DNA from: Raoultibacter timonensis
GTDB lineage: Bacteria; Actinomycetota; Coriobacteriia; Coriobacteriales; Eggerthellaceae
DNA length: 64,000 bases
Reading direction: 5' to 3'
Assembly (NCBI RefSeq): GCF_900240215.1
Contig: NZ_LT964679.1
Coordinates: 2,645,322-2,709,321 of the forward strand
A program made the position numbers and the translations under genes. Shown here piece by piece: positions 10,816 through 25,687 of the stretch. The first letter of the stretch is position 1. Every line of letters starts with the position of its first letter. A model generated the notes under the pieces. The model saw only the letters and a program-made list of their open reading frames with translations, made no database searches and was not told the DNA's origin.

Positions 10816-11739
10816 TCAATGTTCGGCTCTGTCGAAGAAAGCATCCAGTTCGCCCTGTTTGCCGTAAGGTGCAAGCAGTTTTTTCGCTACCATGCGGGCC
10901 ATCGGACGCAAAGCGGGACTGAACACGAACATCGAATCCATCTCGATCGGAGCATTGACAAGCGGCCTCATGCACACTTGATCGGTAACGAGCGCCTTGG
11001 CGTATTCGGTTTGAATGATGAAGCAGTCTTCGCTTGTCGATACCTGAGCGAGCATGAGATTTTTATCATGGATGAGCAGCTCCACGTTTATCCCGTAGTT
11101 CCTGAACGCGGTCTCGTACAGTCGTCCCTTATAAGGGCTTGTCTGGATTACGGTTTTTCCCAGAAGATCGGTTTCGAAGTCGATGCACTTCTTCGCAGCG
11201 AGAGGATCACCCGCCGAAAGCAGGATCGAAAGGCTGTCGTCGCACAGCTTAATCGATGGAATTCCCAGATCATCAGGCGGCTTTACAGAAAACGCAAACT
11301 CCATTTCCCCAGCAGCAATAGCCTCCCAGAACGCGTCGTGGTCCCCATCGACCACCTCGATTCCGATCCTCGCATCGTCTTGAAAGCTTGCCAAAAGCTC
11401 GCGCTTTTCCCTGTACCCCACATACATGCTCAAAAGCCCGATGCGCACAAGCTCCCGTTCCGTCTTCCCGATCTCGCGAATGTCGGCCACACAGGTATCC
11501 CAAAGCCGATCTTCCTCATGGAGGTAGCGCAGCAAGATCCTGCCCGCCCGCGTAAGCTCAACGCCCTTTTTGCCCCGGACGAACAATTGGGCATCCAGCT
11601 GCTTCTCCAGCCTCTTCATGCTTTTCGACAAACCCTGCCGAGAAAGGTACAGCGCACGAGCGGCTTGTGTAATGGTACCCGCCGAGCAGAGCGTGCAAAA
11701 ATACCTCTTCTGGTCCGGATCCATGCGAAACTTTGCCAT
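10816..11739 (-). CDS. LysR family transcriptional regulator
   Basis: A 307-residue regulator. An N-terminal winged HTH is visible (GTITQAARALYLSRQGLSKSMKRLE with the typical LTRAG wing), followed by a periplasmic-binding-like effector domain. The ATG at 11739 is preceded by GGGAG at six-base spacing. It is transcribed divergently from flavoprotein 1 at 12053, which it probably controls in response to that enzyme's substrate. Confidence 0.92.
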   Translation of the reverse strand: MAKFRMDPDQKRYFCTLCSAGTITQAARALYLSRQGLSKSMKRLEKQLDAQLFVRGKKGVELTRAGRILLRYLHEEDRLWDTCVADIREIGKTERELVRIGLLSMYVGYREKRELLASFQDDARIGIEVVDGDHDAFWEAIAAGEMEFAFSVKPPDDLGIPSIKLCDDSLSILLSAGDPLAAKKCIDFETDLLGKTVIQTSPYKGRLYETAFRNYGINVELLIHDKNLMLAQVSTSEDCFIIQTEYAKALVTDQVCMRPLVNAPIEMDSMFVFSPALRPMARMVAKKLLAPYGKQGELDAFFDRAEH

Positions 11740-12052
11740 AGTCATCTCCCTCGCCCATGGCGGTTGTACATCCCCAACGCCAGTCGTCGCGCCAAGCGAA
11801 CCACCGACCCGTTTCCCAATGCCCCAGTATAGGCAAACGCTTCCAAACCACAAGACCATGCGGATTGAGCATTGTTCCCCCCGCGTCAAATCGTCCAATC
11901 CGAAACGCTTTGATCAGGTGTTATCTCCATACGCAAACCTTGAGTTGACGCTTCGTGGCATACAAGAGTTTCTTTTCGGGGCATTGCGCCGAACGTATAG
12001 TGCCGAGTATCGCGAGCCGTGAAGCTCGCATCGCAAGAGGAAGGGAACAGCA

Positions 12053-13633
12053 ATGGGAAATCTTACTCGTAGGGATCTGTTGAAGGGCTTGGGCATCGGC
12101 TCGGTCATGGTCGCCTCGGCAGGAGCGCTCTCCGCGTGCACGCCTGCCGGCAAAGCGACAGGCGGCAACGCCGGCGCTGCATCGGGGTCCGCCGATTCGG
12201 TTGCCTATCAGTACGCCAAGCGCAAAAGCGACGTGACAAGCATGACGCAGTCCGAAGCCGACGTGCTGGTCATCGGTGGCGGCGGAGCTGGTCTCTGCGC
12301 AGCGCTGAGCGCTTCGGAGCAGGGAGCAAAGGTTACTATCTGCGAAAAGATGAGCGTACTCGGCGGCGCAACGATGCTCTCAAGCGGAAAGATCCCCGCC
12401 GTCGGTACCAAGCAGCAAACCGATATGGGCGAGGCAGACAGCGTTGGGGCCTGCGTGATCGACATCATGCGGCCGAGCAACTACAGCGTCCGCCCCGATC
12501 TCGTGTACACGGTAACCGAACAATCGAAGGATATCATCGAGTGGACCGAATCACATGGAGCCGTATGGACGATCGACGAGGCGCTCTACTACGGTCAGAC
12601 GGCGCATCGCATGCATACGACTAACGATGCGGGCAAGGGACTGACCGACGCGTTGATCGCCAGCATGGAAGCCGATCAAAACGTCACCGAAATGCTTTCC
12701 TGCGAAATACTCGGCCTTGTCCTGGCCGACGACGACGATTCCGTCATAGGAGCTTATGGAAAAAACGGCAAGGAAGAGATTGCCATCTTCGCTAAAAACA
12801 CCGTACTCGCTTCGAGCGGCTTCGCCAACAACCCCGACATGCTCGCCCAATACTGCCCCGAAGCCGTCGATGCGGTCAAGGTGGTCGCGCCCGGCGCAAC
12901 CGGCGAGGGCATCCTTTGGGCGCAGGAGCTCGGTGCAGAACTGCAGAACATGGGCGCGTACCAAGGCCACGCGTTTCACGGCGTAGACAACAGCCAAACG
13001 CTTGAACAGGGCGTTGCCAACAACGGCGGCATCATCGTGAACCAGGAGGGTAACCGCTTCATGAGCGAATACGGCGGGTATTCGGAGCTTTCGCCCCACG
13101 TGCTCGCCCAAACCGATCACATTGCGTACCTGTGCTTCACCGATGCCCAAATCGAGAAAAGCGTGAAGTACGCAGGCTGGGAAGAGGAAGGCATCGTGTT
13201 CAAAGGGGCAACCGCCAGCGAGCTCGCAACCGCCATCGGCGCCGATGCGGCAACCTTTGAAAAGACGATCGCAGAATACCAAGCCGCCATCGAAAAAGGC
13301 GAGGACAAGTTCAACCGATCCCATCTACCTTCAGGTTTCGACGGTCCCTACTATGCGGTCAAGATCACCGGCGAAATCCGCCATACGCAAGGCGGCATGT
13401 CCACCGACGTTGCCGGTCACGTAGTGCGGCCTGACAAGAGCCTGATCAAAGGACTGTACGCAGCGGGTGGCTGCACGGAAGGCTTCTCTTCGCGCGGAGG
13501 CGCCGCGTACATGAGCGGCAACGGCCTTATCCAAGCGCTCGTATTCGGCAAGATCGCCGGAGCGGCAGCGGCAACCGAAGACAAGGAATCCGCGGCACTC
13601 GTCGAATGGAAGAAGAGCGAGATCGACGCGTAA
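12053..13633 (+). CDS. Tat-exported lipoprotein FAD reductase, fumarate-reductase-like (flavoprotein 1)
   Basis: A 526-residue flavoprotein. The N-terminus has a twin-arginine motif (RRDLLKG), a hydrophobic stretch and a lipobox ending in Cys at about residue 29. The FAD Rossmann motif is VIGGGGAGLCAALSA. The C-terminal region keeps His-Thr-Gln-Gly-Gly at about residue 444, matching the substrate-binding His-Thr-x-Gly-Gly of fumarate/urocanate reductases, and a FAD-binding end (GGCTEGFSSRGGAAYMSGNG). It has no heme domain, so electrons must come from a separate cytochrome. It is probably a respiratory reductase of an alkene-type acceptor outside the membrane. A divergent LysR gene lies upstream. 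Confidence 0.9.
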   Translation: MGNLTRRDLLKGLGIGSVMVASAGALSACTPAGKATGGNAGAASGSADSVAYQYAKRKSDVTSMTQSEADVLVIGGGGAGLCAALSASEQGAKVTICEKMSVLGGATMLSSGKIPAVGTKQQTDMGEADSVGACVIDIMRPSNYSVRPDLVYTVTEQSKDIIEWTESHGAVWTIDEALYYGQTAHRMHTTNDAGKGLTDALIASMEADQNVTEMLSCEILGLVLADDDDSVIGAYGKNGKEEIAIFAKNTVLASSGFANNPDMLAQYCPEAVDAVKVVAPGATGEGILWAQELGAELQNMGAYQGHAFHGVDNSQTLEQGVANNGGIIVNQEGNRFMSEYGGYSELSPHVLAQTDHIAYLCFTDAQIEKSVKYAGWEEEGIVFKGATASELATAIGADAATFEKTIAEYQAAIEKGEDKFNRSHLPSGFDGPYYAVKITGEIRHTQGGMSTDVAGHVVRPDKSLIKGLYAAGGCTEGFSSRGGAAYMSGNGLIQALVFGKIAGAAAATEDKESAALVEWKKSEIDA

Positions 13634-13808: not shown

Positions 13809-13864
13809 ATTGTCGGCCTAAAAACACGGTTTTTGAGACAAAACCGTGTTTTTAGGCCGACAAT
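13809..13864. repeat. Perfect 25-base inverted repeat with 6-base loop
   Basis: Arms at 13809-13833 and 13840-13864 are exact complements. Each contains GGCCTAAAAACACGG or its complement. It lies in a 400-base gene-free stretch (13634-14035) between flavoprotein 1 and tRNA-Ser. It may be a bidirectional terminator or a cruciform site; the rest of that stretch shows nothing else. Confidence 0.85.
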
Positions 13865-14035: not shown

Positions 14036-14123
14036 GGAGGAATGGCCGAGTGGTTGAAGGCGGCAGTCTTGAAAACTGTTGTGCCGCAAGGTACCGTGGG
14101 TTCGAATCCTACTTCCTCCGCCA
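14036..14123 (+). tRNA. tRNA-Ser (TGA anticodon)
   Basis: The acceptor stem GGAGGAA pairs with TTCCTCC. The anticodon loop CTTGAAA gives TGA, there is a long variable arm, the T loop is GTTCGAATC, and CCA is encoded. Confidence 0.97.
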
Positions 14124-14134
14124 GAAAAACCGCA

Positions 14135-14166
14135 GGCCGCAGACGTGATCCTGTCTGCGGCCTTTT
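14135..14166 (+). terminator. Intrinsic terminator of tRNA-Ser(TGA)
   Basis: A 10-base stem GGCCGCAGAC / GTCTGCGGCC with an 8-base loop is followed by TTTT. Confidence 0.9.
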
Positions 14167-14263
14167 GCTTTGCCGGATGGTGCCACGGCACCGCGAGAAA
14201 GTTCCAACCAGCTCGGCTCGCTCATCGAAAGCATCGCGATTCGAGTCTGCGCCCAGCACACGT

Positions 14264-17227
14264 TCACTCGGCTTGATCGCTCTTACGCGACCTTCTGCGT
14301 GCACTCAACAAAAGAGCTAGAACGAACGCAGCTCCTCCGATGATCAGCAGCCAATAGGGCTGCTGATCGGATTCGACCTCGGTGATCGGCGGCGCATTGT
14401 AGGTGTTCGTCACGGTTAGAACGTTGTACGAACCGCCCTGCCCATCGATAAGGTCGTCGGTCAAGTCGACATCCCAGATGCCGTCGTCGCTGCCCGGATT
14501 CCCCGAATGGGCCCGCCCGATAGGCGCACCGTTCAACTCGTACGAAACGCGAATGGACTTCAAACCCGGCGCTTCGTTCGCGCCGAATACCGTTTTGTAG
14601 TAGTAGGTGATCTTGTTGTCCGCCTCCCCGTTGCTCGGCGTATAGTACCAATCGGATAGGGAGTTGCTGCCACTGTAGCCCGTCGCAGGATCCCATACGG
14701 CAAACCACAGGCCGAATGTCCGTGTGTAGTCGAAGAACTCGGTATCTCCAGCCGCCACGTTCCTGATGACGATATCGGTTTTATACGCTGCGTAAAACTC
14801 GACGAGGGGGAATGCAGTCGTCAAAACGTCTCCCCCGATTGACCAGGTTTCGTCTGCAACCTTGATGTCGCTACCGTCGACCCGGGGAACCTCGGCTCCC
14901 GTCCATCCGGCGAAGGCATATCGATCGAGCGCGTAGTCGATCGTCGCCCCGTCGAAGGCAACGGCGTTTTGCCGTTTCACCGTGGCCGTAACGCCCCCGA
15001 GCGATCTGAAGGGAACCTCCTGCACGAAATAGGCCACCGTGTTTGATGCGCTGCTTTCTCCCCCGTTCCCATGGTAGGCGACGGTGTAGCTGAAGTAGCT
15101 GATGTCGTAATTGTTGAGCGGATGACTCCGTCCCGCAGGCACCGTACCCGACGGAGCGTCCGAGGAGCTCAGGGCTCTCGAGCACGGATACACGGACGAA
15201 TCGGCAGCGACATCGTCGGCAGGAACGCGATACGCCCCCGCAGTGTTCCCCGTGAACGAAACCGTCGATGCATCTACCGTCAGGTTGTTCAGGAAAACGG
15301 TGAAGATCGCACCGCCGTTTGCAGAAGCGGTATTGCCCGACATGGTCGAATTGGCAATGCCGACGCGTACGCCAGCACCTGCATCTTGGTCGACAAAGAT
15401 TGCGCCACCGCTTCCGACGGCCCGATCGTCTCCGATGGAGGCGCCGGGATCGGTTGCGCTGCAGTTCGTAATATCCGTACCGTTTATTTGCAGGTCGACC
15501 GTACCGGCAAGGTTGATGCCGCCGCCCCAGCCACCGTACCAGCCGAGACCCCGCGCCGAGCAGTTCTCGATGCTTCCTCCGAACAGTTTGATGACGGCGC
15601 TTTCCGTTGCCAGAATACCGCCTCCGGAGTCTTTGGTGTAGCATCCGTCGATTATGCCGCCCGTCATAGTAAACGTGTTCGAGGCCATCAGGTAAACGCC
15701 GCCGCCCCCGATGTCGGAACTGTTGGTTTTGATGCTTCCGCTCGTGAACTCGATGCTCGACGGTACCCCGTAATCGCCGCTGGCAACACCGCCGCCATGG
15801 CCGTTCAGCCTTGAGGAGGTCGCCGACGTAGCCCTGTTGTTCGAGATCATAGCACCCTCGATCTTCAGGCTGGAGCCGTCGTCGACGTACACGCCGCCGC
15901 CTCGCGAGCCCCACTCCGTAATCGAGGCCGCTTGGTTCGAATCGACCAAGGCGCCGCCGCCGAGCGTGATCGCCGTTCCTCCCCCGCCGAATATTCCGCC
16001 ACCATGCCGACCCGTATTGCCCGACACCGTTGCCGTGCCGCTCACGCTCATCGTCGCGCCGTACGCGCCGATGCCGCCGCCAAACCCGTTTTCGCCTTGG
16101 TTCTGCTGCTCGTTGTATGCCACGCTGTCCATGATCGATCCGCCCGTAAAACTGAGCGTCGATCCCCAGCCGAGCCCCACAGCGCCGCCGACTGCAGCGG
16201 TGCAGCCGGTAATCGTTCCCGCGGTAAACGCAAATCGCGCGTTCGCATCGACGTAAATCCCGCCGCCGGACCTGCCGTCGAGCGTATCGGTACGACAGTT
16301 CTCGATACGGGCCCCCGAGAGCGTGAGGGTATCGCCCCCGAAGAACACGCCGCCGCCGTGGCCTCCACGGAAGTACCCGCCGCTGCCATCCCCGGTGGCC
16401 CGACTGTTCGATATCGTACCGCTCTTCAGCTCCAGCTTGTTCGATGGCGTATAGTCGTCGATGCTGATTGCACCGCCGCTTTGCGCCGTTACGCAGTTGG
16501 TGAACGTCGCGCCGTTGAGGACGATCGTGCAGTTGTAGTTATCGTTCACGTAGTTGGGCGCGCTGCCGCCCGTGCCGATGGACAGTCCCCCACCCCTTCC
16601 GGCTCCGTCGATGGTAAGGCCGGCGTTGAAGGTTATCGTCTGCGCGTGGTCTGCGGTTCCGTACGATAAGAAATGCCGGGCAGATCCCTCCCAGCCGCTG
16701 TCAGCCGCAGGACCGGCCCACGTCAGATTCCACGACCCCCCCTCGGCAACGAACACCGAGCTCCTGTTCCAGGGAAGCGCGATGACTTCGGTGAAGACGA
16801 TGTCGTTTTTGATCACGAAGGTGATCGTATCGCCTTGCGCGGTCGACGAGTCGGTGTCGGCAACCGCCGCTTTCAAATCGCTGAAGCTCGTGATGGCATA
16901 GCTCTTGCTGGCAAGCGTGCTTACGCCCCCATCGGGAGTCGCCGCCTCGCCATTCTGTGCCGGGTCCTGCGGTAGCGCCCCCGGCCCGTCAGAGCCATCC
17001 GAAACCTGCCCGTCCGACTCCGATCCATCGCCCGAGCCCGTATCGGGCTCGCCTGCCTCCGCGTGCTCGGACGATTCTTCCACAGTAGCATCTGCCCCAA
17101 GCGCGATCAGCGCTTCGCTTTGGTTCATCTCTTCGGCTATCCCCGCATACGGAACAGCCGCCACGGACAAGCAAACCGCAAGCAGTGCCACAGCTGTTTT
17201 CTTGGTAACCGTATTAAGCAATCTCAT
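14264..17227 (-). CDS. Large surface adhesin with parallel beta-helix repeats, last gene of pilus locus
   Basis: A 987-residue protein. A signal peptide (residues 1-31) and an acidic Ser/Gly/Asp-rich stretch precede about 550 residues of irregular beta-helix repeats rich in GGGI/GGAI and Asn-Cys steps (pectin-lyase-like fold). Two C-terminal beta domains follow, including one with a DLTDDLIDGQGGSYNVLTVTNTY type strand. The end has a membrane helix and a basic tail. A sorting signal is not canonical: at the expected place stands PPITE (about 946-950) rather than xPxTG. The ATG overlaps the preceding stop as ATGA. By position and size it is a likely tip or companion adhesin. Confidence 0.85.
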   Translation of the reverse strand: MRLLNTVTKKTAVALLAVCLSVAAVPYAGIAEEMNQSEALIALGADATVEESSEHAEAGEPDTGSGDGSESDGQVSDGSDGPGALPQDPAQNGEAATPDGGVSTLASKSYAITSFSDLKAAVADTDSSTAQGDTITFVIKNDIVFTEVIALPWNRSSVFVAEGGSWNLTWAGPAADSGWEGSARHFLSYGTADHAQTITFNAGLTIDGAGRGGGLSIGTGGSAPNYVNDNYNCTIVLNGATFTNCVTAQSGGAISIDDYTPSNKLELKSGTISNSRATGDGSGGYFRGGHGGGVFFGGDTLTLSGARIENCRTDTLDGRSGGGIYVDANARFAFTAGTITGCTAAVGGAVGLGWGSTLSFTGGSIMDSVAYNEQQNQGENGFGGGIGAYGATMSVSGTATVSGNTGRHGGGIFGGGGTAITLGGGALVDSNQAASITEWGSRGGGVYVDDGSSLKIEGAMISNNRATSATSSRLNGHGGGVASGDYGVPSSIEFTSGSIKTNSSDIGGGGVYLMASNTFTMTGGIIDGCYTKDSGGGILATESAVIKLFGGSIENCSARGLGWYGGWGGGINLAGTVDLQINGTDITNCSATDPGASIGDDRAVGSGGAIFVDQDAGAGVRVGIANSTMSGNTASANGGAIFTVFLNNLTVDASTVSFTGNTAGAYRVPADDVAADSSVYPCSRALSSSDAPSGTVPAGRSHPLNNYDISYFSYTVAYHGNGGESSASNTVAYFVQEVPFRSLGGVTATVKRQNAVAFDGATIDYALDRYAFAGWTGAEVPRVDGSDIKVADETWSIGGDVLTTAFPLVEFYAAYKTDIVIRNVAAGDTEFFDYTRTFGLWFAVWDPATGYSGSNSLSDWYYTPSNGEADNKITYYYKTVFGANEAPGLKSIRVSYELNGAPIGRAHSGNPGSDDGIWDVDLTDDLIDGQGGSYNVLTVTNTYNAPPITEVESDQQPYWLLIIGGAAFVLALLLSARRRSRKSDQAE

Positions 17228-17976
17228 GTGACACCACCTTCCGATTCATCTTTTCGGCGGCGAAGCTTCCTACCGACTATGATGAAAAAGAGCGACAGAA
17301 GCGCTACGAGTGAGAACAGAAGAGCGAGCTCGAGCACGTCGTCCCCCGTTATGGGAAACCCTGCACCGAACACGTTCGAGCCGCCGCCCTGCCCACCCGA
17401 AGCACCGGGGTCGTGAGGATCGAGCGGATCCGCCGGATCATCGGGATCGTGAGGATCGACGGGCGGCTCAGGAGGCTTTGAGGGGCTATAGGTGTGCGCA
17501 AACGCGAGGCTCTCCTCTTTGTAGCCGTTCGAGTTCTCGTACACCGTCTGCATTTCCAAACCGCCGGGCTGATCGAAGCGCACCACGTTATTGCGAATCT
17601 TGTAGTACGTGGTGTCGAGCGCGATATCGGGCTGCTCGCTTGCGGCGGTTGTCACGGTAAGCCGATATTCGTATATCCGCACCGCGCGGTATTCGATGGT
17701 GGGCGCCACGAACACGTCGTTGTCGGCGATGGCGAACTGGTAGCTTGCATCGTCGGTCGGCATGGGGTAGCTGGGATCGAGCGGCTCGAGCGTATACGTG
17801 ACGGTATAGCTTTCATCCGCCGGCAAGCCTTCTATCGTTTGGTATACCGGCATATCAAAGCTAACCGAATCAGCGGCGAATGCCCGCACAGGTGCCGCGC
17901 ACGCAAGCAACAGCGTGCCCAGGGCAAGCGCGAAGGCAATGCCGAGCAATCCCTGTATGTGAGCAGCTTTAGTCAC
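17224..17976 (-). CDS. Small FctB-like pilin/anchor subunit with sortase signal
   Basis: A 250-residue protein with a GTG start overlapping the end of the sortase gene by 8 bases. A signal peptide (1-35) precedes one domain resembling the streptococcal pilin isopeptide-linkage fold (YEYRLTVT and DTTYYKIRNNVVR strands). A Pro/Asp repeat (PPEPPVDPHDPDDPADPLDPHDP) follows, then a Gly-rich linker and a cell-wall sorting region: FPITG at about 207-211, a hydrophobic helix and a basic tail. A proline-rich stalk before the sorting signal is typical of pilus base subunits that attach to the wall. Confidence 0.82.
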   Translation of the reverse strand: MTKAAHIQGLLGIAFALALGTLLLACAAPVRAFAADSVSFDMPVYQTIEGLPADESYTVTYTLEPLDPSYPMPTDDASYQFAIADNDVFVAPTIEYRAVRIYEYRLTVTTAASEQPDIALDTTYYKIRNNVVRFDQPGGLEMQTVYENSNGYKEESLAFAHTYSPSKPPEPPVDPHDPDDPADPLDPHDPGASGGQGGGSNVFGAGFPITGDDVLELALLFSLVALLSLFFIIVGRKLRRRKDESEGGVT

Positions 17977-18922
17977 GTTTCGTCTGTGCTTCTTTCCTTT
18001 TTCTCTCCCGCCTCTTTATCGCGTAGATAAGGAGCGAGACCACGATGATCACGATCACGCAAAGCGCGACGAGGGCAAGATCGTGTGGGAACCTGTCGAA
18101 CAGATCGCCCAACCCCGATCCCCTGTTTTCAGAGGCGAAGGAGTTCTCGAAGCGATCGTCGCTCAACTTCCCCACGAGCAGATGCCTGCCGTTCGTCGGC
18201 TCGGAAGCGCAGGTGCTCAGCACCACGAGCCGGTCGTCGGCGCCTATCTCGATATCCCGACTGTGGTAGGCAATCGAGTACACGTAATCGATATAGGCCC
18301 GCTTCTCGCCTTCGGATTCGACGTAGGGGTTGTACAGTTTTTCGTCGTAAGCGTCTCCGAGCACATAAGCGAAGAGCTCTATCCCGTAGTACCGGTCGGT
18401 GGCGGAGGTGTAGATCTCTCCGTATGCGTGGCTCTCGAAAAACTCCGCGCTTTCAAACTTGTCGATATCGCCGAACATCGCACTTTCATCCATATGGTGC
18501 CCGTACAGAATGCTGTTGAAGTCCGACAGATCCCGGCTGTTTCGATAGTCCAGATAGATCGCCCCCGCTATCGAAGGCGAATCGTACACGCTCGTATTCA
18601 CGTACTTGAAGTTGTTATCGGTTTGTGCCACCGGGTAGTCGATACCCGTACCGAACACCCCCACCCAACCGAACACTTCAGAATTTTTCTGCTGCAGCTC
18701 GGCGAACGAAGCCGTATCGTGGGGCTTGTACTGTTCGTACTGGACGGAGTTTGCACCCTTGATTATCCGTCCGTTGTCGTACACGACATACGAGGCGCAA
18801 AGCAGTACGAGAACGAGAACGATCAAGAACAGATTGTCGAAGGCGGCGTCAACCGCGCGGAGGACCTTCAAGCCTCCGCTTCGACGCTCGACGCCCTCAT
18901 TGTTCACGTACTGCTTTGCCAT
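17969..18922 (-). CDS. Class B sortase (pilus polymerising type)
   Basis: A 317-residue transpeptidase. Membrane helices at about 31-48 and 280-300 enclose a sortase domain. The catalytic triad residues are visible: His in LYGHHM (about 142), Cys in LSTC (238) and Arg in NGRH (246). The class B features GAIYLDYRN and the extended helix region are present. It would cleave sorting signals of the adjacent pilins and join them through isopeptide bonds. AGAGGAA precedes the ATG. It lies between two putative substrates, as in streptococcal FCT-type pilus loci. Confidence 0.92.
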   Translation of the reverse strand: MAKQYVNNEGVERRSGGLKVLRAVDAAFDNLFLIVLVLVLLCASYVVYDNGRIIKGANSVQYEQYKPHDTASFAELQQKNSEVFGWVGVFGTGIDYPVAQTDNNFKYVNTSVYDSPSIAGAIYLDYRNSRDLSDFNSILYGHHMDESAMFGDIDKFESAEFFESHAYGEIYTSATDRYYGIELFAYVLGDAYDEKLYNPYVESEGEKRAYIDYVYSIAYHSRDIEIGADDRLVVLSTCASEPTNGRHLLVGKLSDDRFENSFASENRGSGLGDLFDRFPHDLALVALCVIVIIVVSLLIYAIKRRERKRKEAQTKRD

Positions 18923-18995
18923 GGTTGTTCCTCTAAAGAAAGATCGGCGGGATTAGCTCTTGCCGGCATATCCCGCCTTCCGATCCTTCTCGTGC

Positions 18996-20333
18996 CTAGT
19001 CTTCTTCGGCCTGGCGCCGAGCCCTGCTCACGAAGTAGAATCCAATACCGATGCATGCAGCGAGCCCAATGAGGATCAGCGGCATGTTGTCGAGAACGAC
19101 ACCGGTAATGCTGATATTGGTGCGCTCGTTGGTGATGGTTACCGTGTTGTCGCTGTCTGCCGCCACGAATTCATCTTTGTAGGTGACATCCGATCCGGTC
19201 GACACCTCGTACACCGAAACGGAAGCGGCACCGGGATTGCCCGTGACGCCGGAAATGTCGGACGCCTTCGTGTACTGCGTCAGGGAATCGGTTTCGCTCA
19301 CCTTGTACGTGGTTCCCAGCGGAAGGTTCCTGAAGTAGATGGTTTCGTTATGCCCGATGGGCGTGGACGGAATGGAGCCTTCGGTTGCACCTGCGGCGAA
19401 CGGAATCTTGCTCCATCCAGAGGTAACCTCCGTACCGCCGCTGCCGTCGGACCACAGGGTTCCATCCTCGTCGAAGACGTAGGTGTTCGGCGCGACGATG
19501 TACTCGACGTCGAAAGCACCTTCGGCGGCCTTCGGCAAGGTGAAGCTCACATCGAAGGGGAACTTCAGGGTGAAGTCGGCCCAATCGCCGGTGATGACGT
19601 TGGCGGTCTTCAGCGTTACCGGAACGGTGTATTCGTTCTTGAAGGTGAATCCGTTCGCAACCTTGGGTGCCGCATCCTCCAAAACGTTGTCAGCGCTTAC
19701 CTTTGCGTCGTCGTTATCCGCATTCGGATTGGAGATCGCGTCGGTCAACTCGAAAACGGTGACGGCGTACACGACGGTGCCCGCGGGGTTCCCGCTTGCG
19801 TTCACGTTCTTCACCCATACGCGCATCTGGTATTTCTGCTCGGAGTAGGCCATACCCTCGGTATCGGTACCGGACGGCGCCTGGTCGGAAGGCTTGACCT
19901 CGACGACCTCGTAGATGTACTCGCCGGCATGCGGGTAGCTGTTGGTCACGCTACCCGTAATGTTGCCCGAAAGCACCTTGTTCACTTCGCCTGCGGTCAG
20001 GCTGGAGAACTGCGCCGTTGTCGAGAGCGTCCGGACATCTTTGTAGGTGTCTGTCGACACGGCCCCCGAGTGATCGGCCACGTCCGTCAGCGTTGCGACG
20101 AACTGGTATTCCTCGCCTAGGAGCTTGGTCGTGTCGGCGCCTGCGGGCACATCCAGGTGCTTGCTGATCCACGCTCCGGCCAGGGTGCCCTGGACGGTCT
20201 CGGAGCCCGATCCATCGCCGTTCTTCGGAATTTCTTCCGCGAAGGCCACGCTCGCCATTCCTGTCAACGACAGCGCAAGCGCCACCACTGCGGCCAATGC
20301 CGTACTCGCTACTTTCTGTCTTACTCTTGCCAT
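18996..20333 (-). CDS. Major pilin, FctA (Spy0128-like) type
   Basis: A 445-residue protein. A signal peptide ends at about residue 32 (AFAEE). Two pilin isopeptide-linkage domains follow, with the E-box-like strand HAGEYIYEVVEV and SEQKYQMRVWVKN in the first and a second domain from about residue 225. The end carries ISITG (407-411), a membrane helix and a basic tail, which is the sorting signal in a form (xxITG) shared with the neighbouring small subunit. AGAGGAAAGG precedes the ATG. It is likely the polymer-forming shaft subunit, stabilised by internal Lys-Asn bonds. Confidence 0.88.
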   Translation of the reverse strand: MARVRQKVASTALAAVVALALSLTGMASVAFAEEIPKNGDGSGSETVQGTLAGAWISKHLDVPAGADTTKLLGEEYQFVATLTDVADHSGAVSTDTYKDVRTLSTTAQFSSLTAGEVNKVLSGNITGSVTNSYPHAGEYIYEVVEVKPSDQAPSGTDTEGMAYSEQKYQMRVWVKNVNASGNPAGTVVYAVTVFELTDAISNPNADNDDAKVSADNVLEDAAPKVANGFTFKNEYTVPVTLKTANVITGDWADFTLKFPFDVSFTLPKAAEGAFDVEYIVAPNTYVFDEDGTLWSDGSGGTEVTSGWSKIPFAAGATEGSIPSTPIGHNETIYFRNLPLGTTYKVSETDSLTQYTKASDISGVTGNPGAASVSVYEVSTGSDVTYKDEFVAADSDNTVTITNERTNISITGVVLDNMPLILIGLAACIGIGFYFVSRARRQAEED

Positions 20334-20374
20334 TGCCTTTCCTCTCTTTGCGACGTTCTTTCCGATGCTTCCTG

Positions 20375-20974
20375 CTAGATGTTTCTCGTTCTCATGACAA
20401 ACACTGTTTTTCCAACAATGATGTTCTCCTTCACGGGGCCGTACATGCGGCTGTCGAGCGACTCCGCCCGGTTATCGCCGAGCAAAAACACTTCGCCCGG
20501 CCCGAGCGTAACGGGGAAATCGATGCCGCCTTCATAGAGAAGCGTCTCTGCGCCCGTGCTGCCGACATTGCCGCTGATGCTTCGCTCCTGCTGCAGCTTG
20601 CCGTTTATCTCAAGGCCCCCCTCGGTTATGTTCACGGTATCTCCTTCAACGGCTACCACCCTTCTGAGCTGGATGTTTTCTTCGTACTCGACAGCAACGA
20701 CATCTCCGGAGGTGTAATCGTGATCCAAGCGGTAAAACAACAGTAAATCGCCGCTTTTCAGGGAAGGGTTCATCGAGTTGTCCTCCACTTTCGCAATGCC
20801 AAAAACGAAAACGAGGGCGAGAAGAACCACGAGCGCAACCAGTGCAACCTTGAGTATCAAGTACAGCACTTCGAGCAGAAGCTTGTTGCGTTTCGGCTTG
20901 CGTTGCGTCCGCCGATCGGCTTCCCCGCTTTCAGTGCCTGTCGTTTGCCTAGTGGTGCCGTCCAGTTCAATCAC
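20375..20974 (-). CDS. Signal peptidase I-like protein (SipA type) with altered catalytic lysine
   Basis: A 199-residue membrane protein. One helix (about 33-60) is followed by the type I signal peptidase domain. The nucleophile box is kept (NSMNPSL, Ser67) and so is the GDNRAESLDSRMYGPV box. The catalytic-lysine box reads RRVVAVEGD, with Arg104 where active enzymes have Lys. Streptococcal SipA proteins of FCT pilus loci lack catalytic residues and act as assembly chaperones, so the same role is inferred. The GTG start is the only usual start codon before an upstream stop; AAGG abuts it. It is first gene of the pilus operon. Confidence 0.85.
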   Translation of the reverse strand: MIELDGTTRQTTGTESGEADRRTQRKPKRNKLLLEVLYLILKVALVALVVLLALVFVFGIAKVEDNSMNPSLKSGDLLLFYRLDHDYTSGDVVAVEYEENIQLRRVVAVEGDTVNITEGGLEINGKLQQERSISGNVGSTGAETLLYEGGIDFPVTLGPGEVFLLGDNRAESLDSRMYGPVKENIIVGKTVFVMRTRNI

Positions 20975-21379
20975 CCTTCGAAACCAGGAGCCGAGAATGC
21001 CGGGCGACGGCTAGCGGGAGCAAGCTCTCTGCTTCTTCGGGTGCCTATATTAGTAATAAATTACAATATTAGGAACCGGTCTACCCCTGCTGCAGGCAAA
21101 CCGTGGTGGGCGTATCGAAGGAGCGGAGCGCTCTCGCTCTCAAACTCAGTGTGCTTCCGTTTTATGGAATCCGAGTATACCTATCAAAATGGTAGGAAGA
21201 TACTTAATTATGCAATTCCTTACCTTCTTCACAATTATAACGAGACAGATCATCGGATAGGATTTTACGGAAACACCTTTCGCCCAATGCACGACGAAGC
21301 CCCGGCCAGGTTACCGACCGGAGCTTCGCCATGCGTATGCTTATGTAGCGGAGGTTGTCCGAGAACTCGAAAGAACCTT
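20975..21379 (-). promoter_or_regulatory. AT-rich region upstream of the pilus operon
   Basis: A 405-base gene-free stretch, clearly lower in GC at 21038-21075 and 21175-21265. The first patch has an imperfect inverted repeat (CCTA...TAGG, 21044-21073). It includes a possible minus-strand TAATAT with TTCCTA 17 bases upstream. No coding potential is seen. It probably carries the pilus promoter and the end of the cytochrome transcript. Confidence 0.4.
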
Positions 21380-21997
21380 CTATAGACTCGCCCCGCCGAC
21401 GGTCCATCCGAGGCCAGGGGCCATCGCAGCCGCCTCTTCGTGGCATTGCCCGCAATACAGGTCGGAAGGCCCGTGGGCGCTGTGGCAGGTGCCGCATGCG
21501 ATATCACCGTGGCGGTTCTGATGGGGGTTGAACGCGAGGCCGTCGGTCAGCGCCTCGAGTCCTGCGCGGTCCATGTCGTGGCACGCCTCGTTCAGACAGA
21601 AGGTTTCGTCGTACTCCATCTTCGGAAGCGGATCCTTGAAGTCGCCCGACACCCATTTGATGCCCTCGGCTATCTGCTCGTCGATCTTCGGCTCGTGGCA
21701 CTGCAGGCAGGTGTAGCCCTCCCGCGCATGGGCTGTCACCATGAGCGATTCGTCGCCCGACTCATAGCTCTCGACGTAGGGGTCCATGGGGCTGTGACAG
21801 ATCGCGTTGCAGAAGGCGGGGCTCTCGTGCCACACCCAGAACCCAGCGCCCGCGGCCACGAGCACTACGGCTACCACGCCTGCGACAACGGGCCACTTCC
21901 TGCGCTTCTTCTTCGCGACGGGCTCGACCCGATCGCCTTCCAATATGGCATCGCTGCCGCTCAACGCCTCGTCGGCGGCTGTTTTCTCGTCTTCCAT
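21380..21997 (-). CDS. Membrane-anchored multiheme (pentaheme) c-type cytochrome, NapC/NrfH-like
   Basis: A 205-residue protein. A cytoplasmic acidic/basic N-terminus and one membrane helix (about 35-56) precede a heme domain. There are five heme-binding sites: Cys63-x3-Cys67-His, CLQCH (97-101), Cys134-x4-Cys139-His, CGTCH (168-172) and CGQCH (182-186). Two have non-standard CX3CH and CX4CH spacing. An AGGAGG ribosome site precedes the ATG. It is downstream of flavoprotein 2 on the same strand and probably passes electrons from menaquinol to that enzyme. Confidence 0.9.
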   Translation of the reverse strand: MEDEKTAADEALSGSDAILEGDRVEPVAKKKRRKWPVVAGVVAVVLVAAGAGFWVWHESPAFCNAICHSPMDPYVESYESGDESLMVTAHAREGYTCLQCHEPKIDEQIAEGIKWVSGDFKDPLPKMEYDETFCLNEACHDMDRAGLEALTDGLAFNPHQNRHGDIACGTCHSAHGPSDLYCGQCHEEAAAMAPGLGWTVGGASL

Positions 21998-22033
21998 TGC
22001 ATCCTCCTATCGGGATTGTTCACGTTCAGCGGC

Positions 22034-22067
22034 TGCGGGACCGTCGGGCAGCTCCGACGGTCCCGCA
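22034..22067 (-). terminator. Hairpin between flavoprotein 2 and its cytochrome gene
   Basis: 12-base perfect arms (22034-22045, 22056-22067), 10-base loop and no T run. Inside an operon this fits partial termination or mRNA stabilisation, which would set the flavoprotein to cytochrome ratio. Confidence 0.6.
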
Positions 22068-22123
22068 TGGTTTCCCGTCATGCGAGGGGCACGCGGGGGC
22101 ACGCGAACCGCGGGTGGTTACTC

Positions 22124-23692
22124 CTACGCTTCGTCCCAGTTGTCGAGCTTGGCCATTTCTTGCACGCACTTTCGACCGAACGACATCGAGCCGCCGAAAC
22201 TGCAGCCCGAAGCATTGATGGGGCGGCGCGTGCCGGGCACGATGCCCATGTTGCAGAAGTCCGAAATGTTGCCTGCGAGATACAGGCCGGGAATCACGTT
22301 GCCGAACACGTCGACCGCCTGCAGGTGATCCTCCTGCCAGCGCTTGAGCCCGCCGTAGGTGGAGCTGACAACGCTTGTGGTCTTGAAGGCGTAGTACGGC
22401 GGCGTCGTCAGGGCGACGGGCGCCGCTCCGGTCCCGGAAAGATGCGCGCGGCCGAATGCGCTATCGACACCCGACCCTTCAATATCGGCGTTGTACTGGT
22501 TCATCGTTGCAACGAACGCATCGGCGGGAATGTCCATTTGCGCAGCGAGATCCTCGAGCGTGTCGGCCTGCACCATAAGCCCCGTCTCGATGATCTTGCT
22601 CATCGAATAGTATCCCGATTCGTTTTCGGAGCAAGCTTCGGCAATGGGTTCGTCCCACACTTGCCAGCAGATGTTCTCGGGCTGCAAAAGCAGTTCGGAC
22701 CAAACGTTGGTGTAGCCCTGCGCCTCGTTGACGAAACGCTCGCCCTCGAGATTCACGAGCACGGCCCCCTGGTGGTACATCGCGCAGGCATCGCCCGTCT
22801 GCCCATCGGGATTCTGTACGGTAAGCATGCCGCAGTAGCTCAAATGGCGCGGGTCGGCGCCAAGAGCCATCGCCATCGTGATGCCCTGGCCAAGCTGGCC
22901 GAGCGACCCGTTGAACACCGTCATGTCCTCGACCGCAGGTCCGAAGTTCCACTCGTTGAGCATAGTCTTGTTGCGTCCGTATCCACCCGAGCACAAGAGC
23001 ACTGCTTTTTTCGCCTTGAGGTATTGCGTGGACCCGTTCTGTTCGATCTCGACACCGAGTATGCGCTTGGTCTCGGGGTTTTGGATAATGCGTGTCACAA
23101 GGGTGTTCAGGCGAATATCGGCACCCGCAGCCTGCGCATTTTGGTTGAGCGTGTTAATAAGCTCGCCCGGAGTCACATGATGCTCGCGCGGACGGGAATG
23201 GCCGTTCGATTGCAAAAGGCCCGATGCCTCGAACACGACGCCCATGCTGGTCAGCCAATCGTACATATCGCCGCCGTTGAGGTCGCACAGCATGCGCACG
23301 TAGCCCTCGTCGTAGTCAGTGGCAAACCATGCGCACAAATCCTCGAACATCTGGTCGGGAGAATCGTCGATGCCAAGCTCTGCCTGCAGCGGCGAACCCG
23401 GAATGGCGATACCGCCGTTGCAGATGGCGCTGTTGCCGCCGACCATCGCCTGCGACTCGCAGATGATAATGCTCACGCCCTGCGTCTGCGCCTCGATGCC
23501 CGCAGCAAGACCGGCACCGCCCGCCCCGATGGCAATGATGTCGGCTTCGTCGTCCCACTGCTCGGGAACTCCCGTGCCCGTCGATGCCGAAGCCGACGCC
23601 TGACCCGAGCCGCACCCGGCAAGACCCGCCATTGCCGCCAAACCCCCGACGGCGATGCCGCCTTTAATGAAATCGCGACGATTCAGTTCCAT
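22124..23692 (-). CDS. Tat-exported lipoprotein FAD reductase (flavoprotein 2)
   Basis: A 522-residue flavoprotein from the ATG at 23692 (an ATG at 23704 is the alternative). Tat motif NRRDFIKG, lipobox LAGC and FAD motif IAIGAGGAGLAAG are present. At the position of the fumarate reductase His-Thr-x-Gly-Gly it reads SSTYGG, so the substrate-binding His is missing and the substrate is probably not fumarate. The end, CSFGGSMSFGRKC, departs from flavoprotein 1. It forms an operon with the pentaheme cytochrome and is followed upstream by a same-strand LuxR gene at 23947. Confidence 0.9.
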   Translation of the reverse strand: MELNRRDFIKGGIAVGGLAAMAGLAGCGSGQASASASTGTGVPEQWDDEADIIAIGAGGAGLAAGIEAQTQGVSIIICESQAMVGGNSAICNGGIAIPGSPLQAELGIDDSPDQMFEDLCAWFATDYDEGYVRMLCDLNGGDMYDWLTSMGVVFEASGLLQSNGHSRPREHHVTPGELINTLNQNAQAAGADIRLNTLVTRIIQNPETKRILGVEIEQNGSTQYLKAKKAVLLCSGGYGRNKTMLNEWNFGPAVEDMTVFNGSLGQLGQGITMAMALGADPRHLSYCGMLTVQNPDGQTGDACAMYHQGAVLVNLEGERFVNEAQGYTNVWSELLLQPENICWQVWDEPIAEACSENESGYYSMSKIIETGLMVQADTLEDLAAQMDIPADAFVATMNQYNADIEGSGVDSAFGRAHLSGTGAAPVALTTPPYYAFKTTSVVSSTYGGLKRWQEDHLQAVDVFGNVIPGLYLAGNISDFCNMGIVPGTRRPINASGCSFGGSMSFGRKCVQEMAKLDNWDEA

Positions 23693-23946
23693 AGTAGATT
23701 CCATCCCTTCTTGCTTCCTTGGTTTCTTCTATCGGCTCCACCAAACGGACTCTAAGCCGACGGATGAAGCGATGGCCGAACCATAGCAGCAGAGACAAAA
23801 CGCCCTGTACCCACGAACCGTGTGTTTTTCGAAACCCCATCCACACGAAGCGGGGGGATGGATGCGTTTTCGCAGATGGATTGCTTTGTTTCCAAGAGCA
23901 CCAAAGCGGGAGTTTCCCAACCGCCAACGCGTTGGGCCACGGGCGA

Positions 23947-25329
23947 TCAGATTGCAAGCAGGTCGAGGAGCTCTTGGCGATTGTGGACATCGAGTTTCGC
24001 GTACAGCGTTTTCGCATACCCGCGAACGGTGTTCTCGGAGATCATGAGATGTTCGGCGATATAGCGCTTCGAGCGCCCCTTGCAGATGAGCTGCATGGTT
24101 TCGAGCTCTCGCTTGGTGAGCCCGTGCTGGTCGGCGAGCACCTCGCATCGGCGGTCTATCCTGTCGAAGTCTTGCAGGGGAACCTCGTCGGGGTTCCCTT
24201 CGGGAAACAGCCGTACGTCGGCATCGTCTTTGAAGTTGAAAACGACGACGGTGCTTACGGTTAAGAGCGCGATCAGGTTGATGATGAACGAGTCGGAATA
24301 CGTGTTGAACGTTCCGAGCTGATCGGCCAAGACCATACCGACGCTCAACGCGATCACATACGGCGCAAACCCGGCGCCGAATACGACGAACGGATGCAGG
24401 GAGGTGCGCGGAGCGAGAGCGCACAAGGAGAAGAACAGGAGGATGACCATCACGTAGCGCGCGAAATCGAATACGACGAACGACACGAATGCACTGTCGC
24501 GGAAGTTCGACGCGACAACCATAGCGAGCAGAACGAACGCCATGGCGATCTGGCAGAGAAAGCTGATGCTTACCCGTTTGTACGAATATCGGATCAGGGC
24601 GAGGAACAAAACGGGGAACGCGGTCTTGATGATCAGGTTGACGCCGATGTACAGCAAATCGCTGTGGATTCCCTCGTTGTTAACCCTGAACAACCCCATG
24701 ACCAAGCCGTACACCGCAAGCTCAATGACGACGAGAACGAGTCCGGTCCTTTTCTTCGATATGGGTTCTTGCGTCGACTTCGCCGGCTCCTCCGGCTGAA
24801 TGTGAGCCTGCGCCTTTCGGCACATGAATACCGCCAGCAGGGGCAACGGCACGGTAAGGACAAGGGACACGTCGAGGGGAAGCACTTCGAAAGGAAAGCG
24901 GATCGCCGGTACAAGCGCAAACGAAACGAGCAGGTAGCTCGCCATCCTCTTCAGGTCTATCGTGCTGAAGAGAGCGGCATACTGCAGGTAGCACCAAACA
25001 AGGCCCGACCCGCCAAGCACTGCACCGATCGGCAGAGCGGCAGCTCCCAATACGCTTTCACCGTAGCGGACGAGAAGCGGCGCAAGGCACATAGCGCCTG
25101 CAAACAACCACGAGAGCGACCGAGGAGACCCACCGCCGTTGCCCCTCATCCTGAAAAACACGATGGCGGAAACAGCAGCGGTAACCCCTTGGGCCACGTA
25201 GAACACCTCGAAGGAAACGGGAGCCGATCGGTCGAGCGTCTGCAGCATGAACCATAGCCATATCTGCGGACACACCAGCCCGAGAAACCATATGTCCTTG
25301 GCGATTTCGCGAACCAACCGAAAATTCAA
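23947..25329 (-). CDS. Membrane-bound LuxR-type regulator A
   Basis: A 460-residue protein with about twelve hydrophobic helices, a short linker and a C-terminal LuxR/GerE HTH (LTKRELETMQLICKGRSKRYIAEHLMISENTVRGYAKTLYAKL, split here by the HTH turn). The start is a TTG at 25329: AAAGGGG lies six bases before it and a minus-strand TATACT at 25353-25358 gives a short leader; homologous regulators here begin at the same point. It is probably an activator of the flavoprotein 2/cytochrome operon downstream on the same strand, with the membrane part sensing a small molecule. Confidence 0.87.
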   Translation of the reverse strand: MNFRLVREIAKDIWFLGLVCPQIWLWFMLQTLDRSAPVSFEVFYVAQGVTAAVSAIVFFRMRGNGGGSPRSLSWLFAGAMCLAPLLVRYGESVLGAAALPIGAVLGGSGLVWCYLQYAALFSTIDLKRMASYLLVSFALVPAIRFPFEVLPLDVSLVLTVPLPLLAVFMCRKAQAHIQPEEPAKSTQEPISKKRTGLVLVVIELAVYGLVMGLFRVNNEGIHSDLLYIGVNLIIKTAFPVLFLALIRYSYKRVSISFLCQIAMAFVLLAMVVASNFRDSAFVSFVVFDFARYVMVILLFFSLCALAPRTSLHPFVVFGAGFAPYVIALSVGMVLADQLGTFNTYSDSFIINLIALLTVSTVVVFNFKDDADVRLFPEGNPDEVPLQDFDRIDRRCEVLADQHGLTKRELETMQLICKGRSKRYIAEHLMISENTVRGYAKTLYAKLDVHNRQELLDLLAI

Positions 25330-25352
25330 GCTCGACCCCTTTCGTCCGTCAC

Positions 25353-25358
25353 AGTATA
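25353..25358 (-). promoter_or_regulatory. -10 element of regulator A
   Basis: TATACT on the minus strand, about 24 bases before the proposed TTG start. A good -35 is not seen. The 357-base gap 25330-25687 between the divergent regulators holds no other clear feature. Confidence 0.4.
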
Positions 25359-25687
25359 CAGGGAAACGTGAGGATGCCGCTCGAAAGCGCAGAGGGCGGC
25401 GGGAGCACCTTCTGATGCACGACAAAGGGACCCCTGGGTAAAACCATAGATGCAGATCGGCAACTGTACCCTGTTGCACAACAATACTAGGCACTGGTCG
25501 ACGATTGTTTGTTTGCCAATCCCCCGTTCCCAACCACTGCGTTTCCTTTAGCACTCCTGATTCCGGTTTTAGAAACACCCCGTCCTCAGAAACACCCGCT
25601 TCAAGAAAGCGTACACACCGAGCTTATCCGATCGCATGTCCGCAAACAAAGTACGAACGAGCCATACGCCGAAACCCCTATGTTACA

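What the first reader, a model, noticed from the sequence alone, without database searches (positions are those of the whole stretch)
14264..20974. Complete class-B-sortase pilus locus of FCT type in an actinobacterium
Gene order is signal-peptidase-like protein, FctA-type pilin, sortase B, small proline-stalk subunit, large beta-helix adhesin. This mirrors the core of the streptococcal T-antigen (FCT) loci (sipA-fctA-srtC2-fctB), which use a class B sortase. Most actinobacterial pili known to me use class C sortases with LPxTG pilins. Domain content is seen; assembly into a pilus is inferred.
Basis: partly seen in the sequence, partly recalled or inferred. Interest (0 to 1): 0.72.

Follow-up and report, generated by a model that had tools for sequence, protein, structure and literature searches.

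The report
Class B sortase pilus operon
A gut actinobacterium carries a full set of genes for a covalently linked hair-like pilus of the kind built by class B sortases in streptococci; the system is real, probably borrowed from a Bacillota-type lineage, and turns out to be fairly common in gut bacteria, so it is a new member of a known kind rather than a new kind.

Summary
In detail: five co-directional genes (14264-20974, minus strand) encode SipA-like protein, two-domain FctA-type pilin, class B sortase, small FctB-type base pilin and a large beta-helix surface protein. The pilin model's best PDB match is PitB of pneumococcal pilus islet 2, then Spy0128; the FctB-family profile hits streptococcal FctB (3klq); the sortase sits in a supported clade with the streptococcal pilus polymerase, apart from SrtB of S. 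aureus, B. anthracis and C. perfringens and from this genome's own second class B sortase. The SipA homologue has lost the catalytic lysine, as SipA-type chaperones do. The same core genes accompany 58 of 80 related sortases in Bacillota, Coriobacteriia and termite-gut Actinomycetota, so it is not an actinobacterial oddity. The window's version is closest to Ohessyouella and Enterococcus raffinosus, the latter with the identical five-gene order, and is missing at the same site in the one congeneric genome held: probable horizontal acquisition. Peculiarities: pilin domain 2 lacks its isopeptide lysine, and the adhesin's sorting signal reads PPITE instead of xxTG. Pilus formation itself remains inferred.

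The parts
20375..20974 (-). SipA-like signal-peptidase homologue, 199 aa, one N-terminal membrane helix; Ser67 kept, catalytic Lys site is Arg104 (predicted catalytically dead pilus chaperone)
   Evidence: Peptidase_S26 2.7e-29, sigpep_I_bact 2.2e-32; dyad check against 77 related proteins and the genome's own two housekeeping signal peptidases, which keep Ser and Lys
18996..20333 (-). FctA/PitB-type major pilin, 445 aa: signal peptide, FctA domain with isopeptide set K58/E145/N233, candidate linking lysine K211, second DUF7601/CnaB domain with E347/N402 but N245 in place of Lys, sorting signal SITGVVLDNMP + membrane helix + RARR tail
   Evidence: Pfam FctA and DUF7601 over cut-off; profile hits T18.1, PitB, Spy0128 at 5e-61 to 5e-34; column check; AF2 pLDDT 74.5, Foldseek best 4s3l 2.3e-20
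18999..19121 (-). C-terminal sorting signal of the pilin (SITG, membrane helix, basic tail)
   Evidence: same SITG in Ohessyouella and E. raffinosus pilins
17969..18922 (-). class B sortase, pilus-polymerase type, 317 aa, catalytic H142, C238, R246
   Evidence: TIGR03064 over cut-off; PDB 4y4q 4.5e-56, GAS Spy0129 3psq 3.4e-39; tree; residues
17224..17976 (-). FctB-type base pilin, 250 aa: Ig-like domain with invariant candidate acceptor K153, proline-rich stalk, sorting signal FPITGDD
   Evidence: family profile hits 8k6t FctB3 1.8e-15 and 3klq FctB 3.3e-15; alignment A5; TGD signature shared with other wall proteins of the genome
14264..17227 (-). large surface protein (putative tip adhesin), 987 aa, C-terminal PPITEVESDQQP + membrane helix + basic tail
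   Evidence: matches by BLAST to beta-helix adhesins of the same loci in E. raffinosus, Lacrimispora, Christensenella
15248..16912 (-). predicted right-handed parallel beta-helix domain of the surface protein (residues 106-660)
   Evidence: AF2 pLDDT mostly 80-96; recurrent GGG turns; Foldseek hits are generic beta-helices only, E at least 7.5e-3
14267..14392 (-). non-consensus sorting signal of the surface protein (PPIT-E instead of xxTG)
14134..14163 (.). bidirectional terminator-like hairpin that ends the operon
14036..14123 (+). tRNA-Ser(TGA) next to which the variable block lies; in the congeneric genome the same tRNA is followed shortly by the relative of gene 25505-27148

Best explanation
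This is an intact operon for a sortase-assembled pilus of the SipA/FctA/SrtB/FctB (class B sortase) kind. Proposed mechanism: all subunits are exported and held by their C-terminal membrane helices. The class B sortase cleaves the pilin signal SITG between T and G and joins the freed Thr to a lysine (probably K211) of the next pilin, making a covalent shaft; the SipA homologue, which has lost its catalytic lysine, acts as an assembly chaperone and not as a peptidase. The 250-aa FctB protein accepts the last shaft subunit through its conserved lysine (probably K153), ends polymerisation, and is handed by its FPITGDD signal to the genome's second, housekeeping-like class B sortase, which fixes the pilus to peptidoglycan. 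The beta-helix protein is the tip or surface adhesin. Shown: gene content, order, fold families, active-site residues, phylogeny, sorting-signal classes. Inferred: polymerisation, which lysine is used, chaperone role, anchoring by the second sortase, adhesin position and target. The locus was most likely acquired horizontally from a Bacillota-type lineage and is accessory in its genus.
For: Class B sortase inside a pilus-type clade that holds the GAS pilus polymerase (SH-aLRT 99 with 99 rows; bootstrap/SH-aLRT 100/98 with 48 rows), with triad H142/C238/R246. Pilin: FctA + DUF7601, PitB and Spy0128 as best folds, isopeptide residues K58/E145/N233 invariant in 21 of 21 and K211 lysine in 19 of 21. 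FctB profile hits 3klq and 8k6t. SipA: Lys replaced by Arg while the genome's own signal peptidases keep Ser-Lys. 58 of 80 related sortases have pilin, Sip and FctB beside them. FctB carries TGD, the signature of other wall-protein-like signals of this genome ([LM]AxTGD and similar), whereas the pilin carries TGV with DNMP like other pilins, which fits two sortases with separate jobs; the genome search found only two sortases. Horizontal origin: best relative Ohessyouella 58%; AU test rejects grouping with other Coriobacteriia pilus sortases, p = 3.4e-5; block missing beside the same tRNA in the congeneric genome.
Against: No expression or microscopy data. The adhesin's signal lacks the glycine at the cleavage site, so its incorporation is doubtful. 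Pilin domain 2 lacks the isopeptide lysine that 20 of 21 aligned pilins keep. No dedicated regulator of the RofA/Nra kind is adjacent. The genome is a draft (93% complete), so a further sortase could be missing; the congeneric genome has six. Composition of the operon does not differ clearly from its surroundings, so any transfer is not recent or came from a donor of similar GC.
Confidence: 0.87

Rival explanations
1. The operon is a decaying pilus locus: the genes are still open but key sites have been lost, so no functional adhesive pilus is made.
For: Adhesin signal PPITE lacks the cleavage glycine; domain-2 isopeptide lysine of the pilin replaced by Asn; absent from the congeneric genome and most of the family.
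Against: All five ORFs are full length without stops or frameshifts; sortase triad, pilin sorting signal, domain-1 isopeptide set and FctB lysine are intact.
Confidence: 0.08
2. The class B sortase only anchors the small surface proteins to the wall, as S. aureus SrtB anchors IsdC, and does not polymerise them.
For: Class B sortases are best known as wall-anchoring enzymes with NPQTN-type substrates (PMC5817068); no polymer has been shown here.
Against: The sortase lies in the pilus-polymerase clade and apart from anchoring SrtBs; SipA, FctA and FctB accompany it as in loci shown experimentally to make pili (PMC7900414, PMC4049620); an acceptor-lysine column is conserved in the pilins; the pilin signal is not NPQTN-like.
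Confidence: 0.04
3. The 199-aa protein is an active accessory signal peptidase that processes the pilins, not an inactive SipA-type chaperone.
For: Ser67 is retained, unlike GAS SipA, which has Asp48 (PMC4049620).
Against: The Lys general-base position is Arg104; only 2 of about 77 Sip-like ORFs collected from these loci keep Ser+Lys, and in both of those loci the Ser-Lys ORF is an additional gene beside a lysine-less one; the host's own two signal peptidases keep the dyad.
Confidence: 0.1

Closest known systems
Pilus locus of Enterococcus raffinosus DSM 5633 (L055) and N17 (L128), identified here by sequence
   Same: identical five-gene order sip, pilin, class B sortase, FctB, beta-helix adhesin; SITG/NITG pilin signal; sortase 46-50% identical; nearest neighbour after Ohessyouella in the tree
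   Different: FctB ends in LPSTG; adhesin signal VVTG is intact; pilin keeps both isopeptide lysines
Pilus locus of Ohessyouella blattaphilus PAL227 (L054)
   Same: closest sortase (58%), pilin (33% by BLAST) with DISITG signal, same sip-pilin-sortase order
   Different: contig data end just after the sortase, so FctB and adhesin cannot be compared; pilin keeps the domain-2 lysine
Streptococcus pyogenes FCT-2/3/4 loci (cpa-sipA-fctA-srtC-fctB)
   Same: sipA-fctA-srtC-fctB core order, class B sortase, inactive signal-peptidase homologue, small base pilin with proline-rich tail (PMC7900414, PMC4049620)
   Different: tip protein Cpa lies upstream there and is not a beta-helix protein; signals are EVPTG/QVPTG; base anchored by SrtA; FCT regulators present
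Streptococcus pneumoniae / S. oralis pilus islet 2 (sipA, pitB, srtG1)
   Same: PitB is the best fold match of the pilin; a signal peptidase homologue is required for PI-2 pili (PMC7900414)
   Different: different chromosomal setting; no beta-helix protein (from general knowledge of PI-2, not tested here)
Coriobacteriia loci in Olsenella sp. kh2p3, Olsenella profusa F0195, Tractidigestivibacter scatoligenes (L091, L109, L092)
   Same: same class, complete adhesin-sip-FctA-SrtB-FctB loci
   Different: adhesin upstream; different sortase subclade; pilin signal TPTG

Membership tests
SipA/FctA/SrtB/FctB (class B sortase) pilus loci | class B sortase of the pilus-polymerase clade, intact catalytic triad | tested here: met
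   TIGR03064 over cut-off; clade with 3psq, starred support; H142/C238/R246
SipA/FctA/SrtB/FctB (class B sortase) pilus loci | two-domain FctA-type shaft pilin with isopeptide domains | tested here: met
   FctA + DUF7601, PitB/Spy0128 fold; domain 1 residues complete, domain 2 lacks the Lys
SipA/FctA/SrtB/FctB (class B sortase) pilus loci | signal-peptidase-I homologue that has lost the Ser-Lys dyad | tested here: met
   Lys site is Arg104; Ser67 retained, so only one half is lost
SipA/FctA/SrtB/FctB (class B sortase) pilus loci | FctB-type base pilin with proline-rich stalk and a housekeeping-type sorting signal | tested here: met
   profile hit to 3klq/8k6t; FPITGDD
SipA/FctA/SrtB/FctB (class B sortase) pilus loci | gene order sip-fctA-srt-fctB, one operon | tested here: met
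   the gene set is conserved in 58 of 80 loci
SipA/FctA/SrtB/FctB (class B sortase) pilus loci | covalent polymer on the cell surface | not testable with these tools
   needs immunoblot or electron microscopy
S. pyogenes FCT region in the strict sense | cpa tip pilin upstream of sipA | tested here: not met
   upstream neighbours are cytochrome c and flavoprotein genes; the putative adhesin is downstream and beta-helical
S. pyogenes FCT region in the strict sense | (E/Q/V)(V/P)PTG signal on the shaft pilin | tested here: not met
   SITG; the consensus is from PMC3019223
class C sortase (SpaA-type) pili | class C sortase with LPXTG shaft pilin | tested here: not met
   the sortase is class B and the pilin has no LPXTG
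S. aureus-type wall-anchoring SrtB system | NPQTN-type substrate and grouping with SaSrtB/BaSrtB | tested here: not met

The most novel reading that the evidence does not exclude
In this organism the whole pilus is made and anchored by class B sortases alone: one class B enzyme polymerises SITG pilins and a second, housekeeping class B enzyme with [LM]AxTGD-type substrates fixes the FctB base to the wall, with no class A, C or E sortase taking part; and the beta-helix adhesin, whose signal lacks the cleavage glycine, is displayed by a route other than ordinary sortase cleavage.
Probability: 0.3. Interest if true: 0.5.

Novelty: new member of a known kind. Interest (0 to 1): 0.36.

Why it matters
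It shows that the class B sortase pilus, described in the held literature almost only from streptococci, has a far wider range: the same SipA-FctA-SrtB-FctB cassette is spread over gut Bacillota, Coriobacteriia and termite-gut Actinomycetota and appears to move between phyla. It gives natural variants for two open points of the streptococcal system: why a dead signal peptidase is needed (here the serine is kept and only the lysine is lost), and what the second isopeptide bond of the shaft pilin contributes (here it is predicted absent).

Tried and rejected
Considered and rejected: housekeeping SrtB system; class C pilus; active signal peptidase. A first sortase tree contained nine rows translated on the wrong strand and was discarded; searches are the corrected trees. 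The AU test on 99 rows did not finish and was repeated on 48 rows.
Full report
What is there. Five genes on the minus strand, 20974 down to 14264, form one tight operon: SipA-like protein, pilin, sortase, small proline-stalk protein, large beta-helix protein. Intergenic gaps are 41 and 73 bp, then overlaps of 8 and 4 bp, and a terminator-like hairpin follows at 14134-14163.

Sortase. It is a class B sortase (TIGR03064, 164.6 bits, cut-off 153.75) with H142, C238 and R246. Its best PDB relatives are 4y4q and the GAS pilus polymerase Spy0129 (3psq, 3.4e-39), well ahead of the other class B sortases at about 1e-25 to 1e-16. In a tree of 99 class B sortases, a clade of 74 with SH-aLRT 99 holds the window and 3psq and excludes SrtB of S. 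aureus, B. anthracis and C. perfringens and most class B sortases found elsewhere in this family, including this genome's own second sortase. A careful tree of 48 rows gives the same split (100/98). An earlier tree held nine wrongly oriented rows and is not used.

Pilin. FctA and DUF7601 domains are over the Pfam cut-offs. A 21-row family profile hits T18.1, PitB and Spy0128 at 5e-61 to 5e-34. The AF2 model (pLDDT 74.5) is closest to PitB of pneumococcal PI-2 (2.3e-20) and then Spy0128. Column checks: K58, E145 and N233, the expected isopeptide set of domain 1, are invariant in 21 of 21; K211, a candidate linking lysine just before that Asn, is lysine in 19 of 21; in domain 2, E347 and N402 are invariant but the lysine present in the 20 relatives is Asn245 in the window. 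So the second intramolecular bond is predicted absent. The assignment of K211 as the linking lysine is inference from its place relative to the streptococcal one.

Base pilin. The 250-aa protein alone is weakly recognised (TIGR03786, 7.7e-4, below cut-off), but the profile of 17 relatives hits FctB3 (8k6t, 1.8e-15) and GAS FctB (3klq, 3.3e-15). K153 is invariant in the family. Its signal FPITGDD shares TGD with other wall-protein-like C termini of the same genome (AATGDA, MARTGD, MAVTGD, LARTGD, LAKTGD, PRTGDG; one KVGD), whereas the pilin's SITGVVLDNMP has the TG-[IVL]...NxP form of the other pilins. That division fits polymerase and housekeeping substrates. The genome search found only two sortases, this one and a class B enzyme with a 432-aa open frame at G000:C1:1836979-1837659, so the second is the best candidate for the anchor. 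The genome is a draft (93% complete) and the congeneric genome has six sortases, so this is provisional.

SipA. In GAS SipA the catalytic Ser and Lys are Asp48 and Gly85, there is no peptidase activity, and the protein is essential for polymerisation (PMC4049620). In the window Ser67 is kept and the lysine is Arg104. Of about 77 Sip-like proteins from these loci, two keep Ser-Lys, while the genome's own two housekeeping signal peptidases keep it. This matches the inactive class.

Surface protein. Residues 106-660 are predicted as a right-handed beta-helix (pLDDT mostly 80-96); the rest is not resolved. Related beta-helix proteins occur at the same place in E. raffinosus and Christensenella, and upstream in Lacrimispora. 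Foldseek finds only generic beta-helix folds, so the ligand cannot be guessed. Its C terminus has the membrane helix and basic tail, but the signal reads PPIT-E (codon GAG). Among the surface proteins listed from related loci nearly all have a Gly after T, S or A (read by eye). How, or whether, it is joined to the pilus is open.

Range and origin. A profile scan of genome contigs found 562 class B relatives. Of the best 80, 58 have pilin, Sip and FctB together; they come from Lachnospiraceae, Oscillospiraceae, Enterococcus, Streptococcus, Coriobacteriia and termite-gut Propionibacteriaceae and Bifidobacteriaceae. Complete loci are present in Olsenella sp. kh2p3, O. profusa F0195 and Tractidigestivibacter scatoligenes. 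In 298 genomes of the class, 78 match the pilin profile; by my reading of the table about 30 have a full-length pilin, the rest single domains in larger proteins. Within the window's family the full-length cases there are G000, G010, G013 and G288. The window's sortase is sister to Ohessyouella (Lachnospiraceae, 58%), then E. raffinosus; holding the Coriobacteriia sortases together is rejected (AU p 3.4e-5). In the congeneric genome G001 the order ispE - tadA - tRNA-Ser(TGA) - relative of 25505-27148, with about 640 bp after the tRNA, leaves no room for the block 14.1-25.5 kb. Neither att-like repeats nor composition mark a recent element. Horizontal acquisition is therefore supported by phylogeny and patchiness, but not dated, and the direction of transfer is inferred from the surrounding Bacillota sequences.

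Compared with the known. [quoted passage not shown] The core is the same in kind, order, folds and active-site signatures. Differences: the adhesin is downstream and beta-helical, the pilin signal is SITG, there is no FCT-type regulator next to it, the likely anchor enzyme is class B, domain 2 lacks its lysine, and the adhesin signal is abnormal. It is a member of the class B sortase pilus kind, not of the FCT region in the strict sense. I found no paper on such loci in Coriobacteriia in the held library, which does not prove there is none.

Verdict. A real, intact-looking and largely ordinary class B sortase pilus operon in an unfamiliar host. Assembly into a pilus is likely but unproven.

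Noticed in passing
L118:7896-9869 and L111:121-2184 (Bifidobacteriaceae MAGs), L104:7980-9668 (Defluviitaleaceae MAG, runs to the contig end): Class B pilus sortase fused in one ORF to FctB-type base-pilin domains (two domains plus an LPFTG anchor in the Bifidobacteriaceae): an enzyme joined to the subunit that ends its own polymer.
   Followed up: partly
L037 / G038:C5 (same-family genome, stretch of 38% GC, 1.1 Mb, 75% complete): The pilus locus on this contig has in-frame TGA codons, seven in the sortase, two of them at columns that are Trp in most relatives, as if UGA is read as Trp in this organism or in a mis-binned contig.
   Followed up: partly
G000 genome, e.g. L147, L148, L150, L151, L160; second sortase L040:8776-10044: Other wall proteins of this genome end in [LM]AxTGD-like signals although the only other sortase found is class B; LAxTG signals are otherwise linked with class E sortases (general knowledge). 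A class B housekeeping sortase with LAxTG-type substrates would be unusual.
   Followed up: partly
window 10816-13633 and 14124-25500: Both sides of tRNA-Ser(TGA) hold blocks missing from the congeneric genome (LysR-like + flavoprotein on one side; pilus operon, Cgr1-like cytochrome, flavoprotein and LuxR-type gene on the other); no integrase or att repeat seen.
   Followed up: partly
window 13811-13862: Long, near-perfect hairpin (TGTCGGCCTAAAAACACGGTTTT...AAAACCGTGTTTTTAGGCCGACA) after the flavoprotein gene, probably a bidirectional terminator; it drew chance miRNA-family hits.
   Followed up: no
L036:7562-8227: In G010 the sip gene is divergent from the pilin-sortase-FctB-adhesin genes, so the sip position is not strictly fixed.
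   Followed up: no
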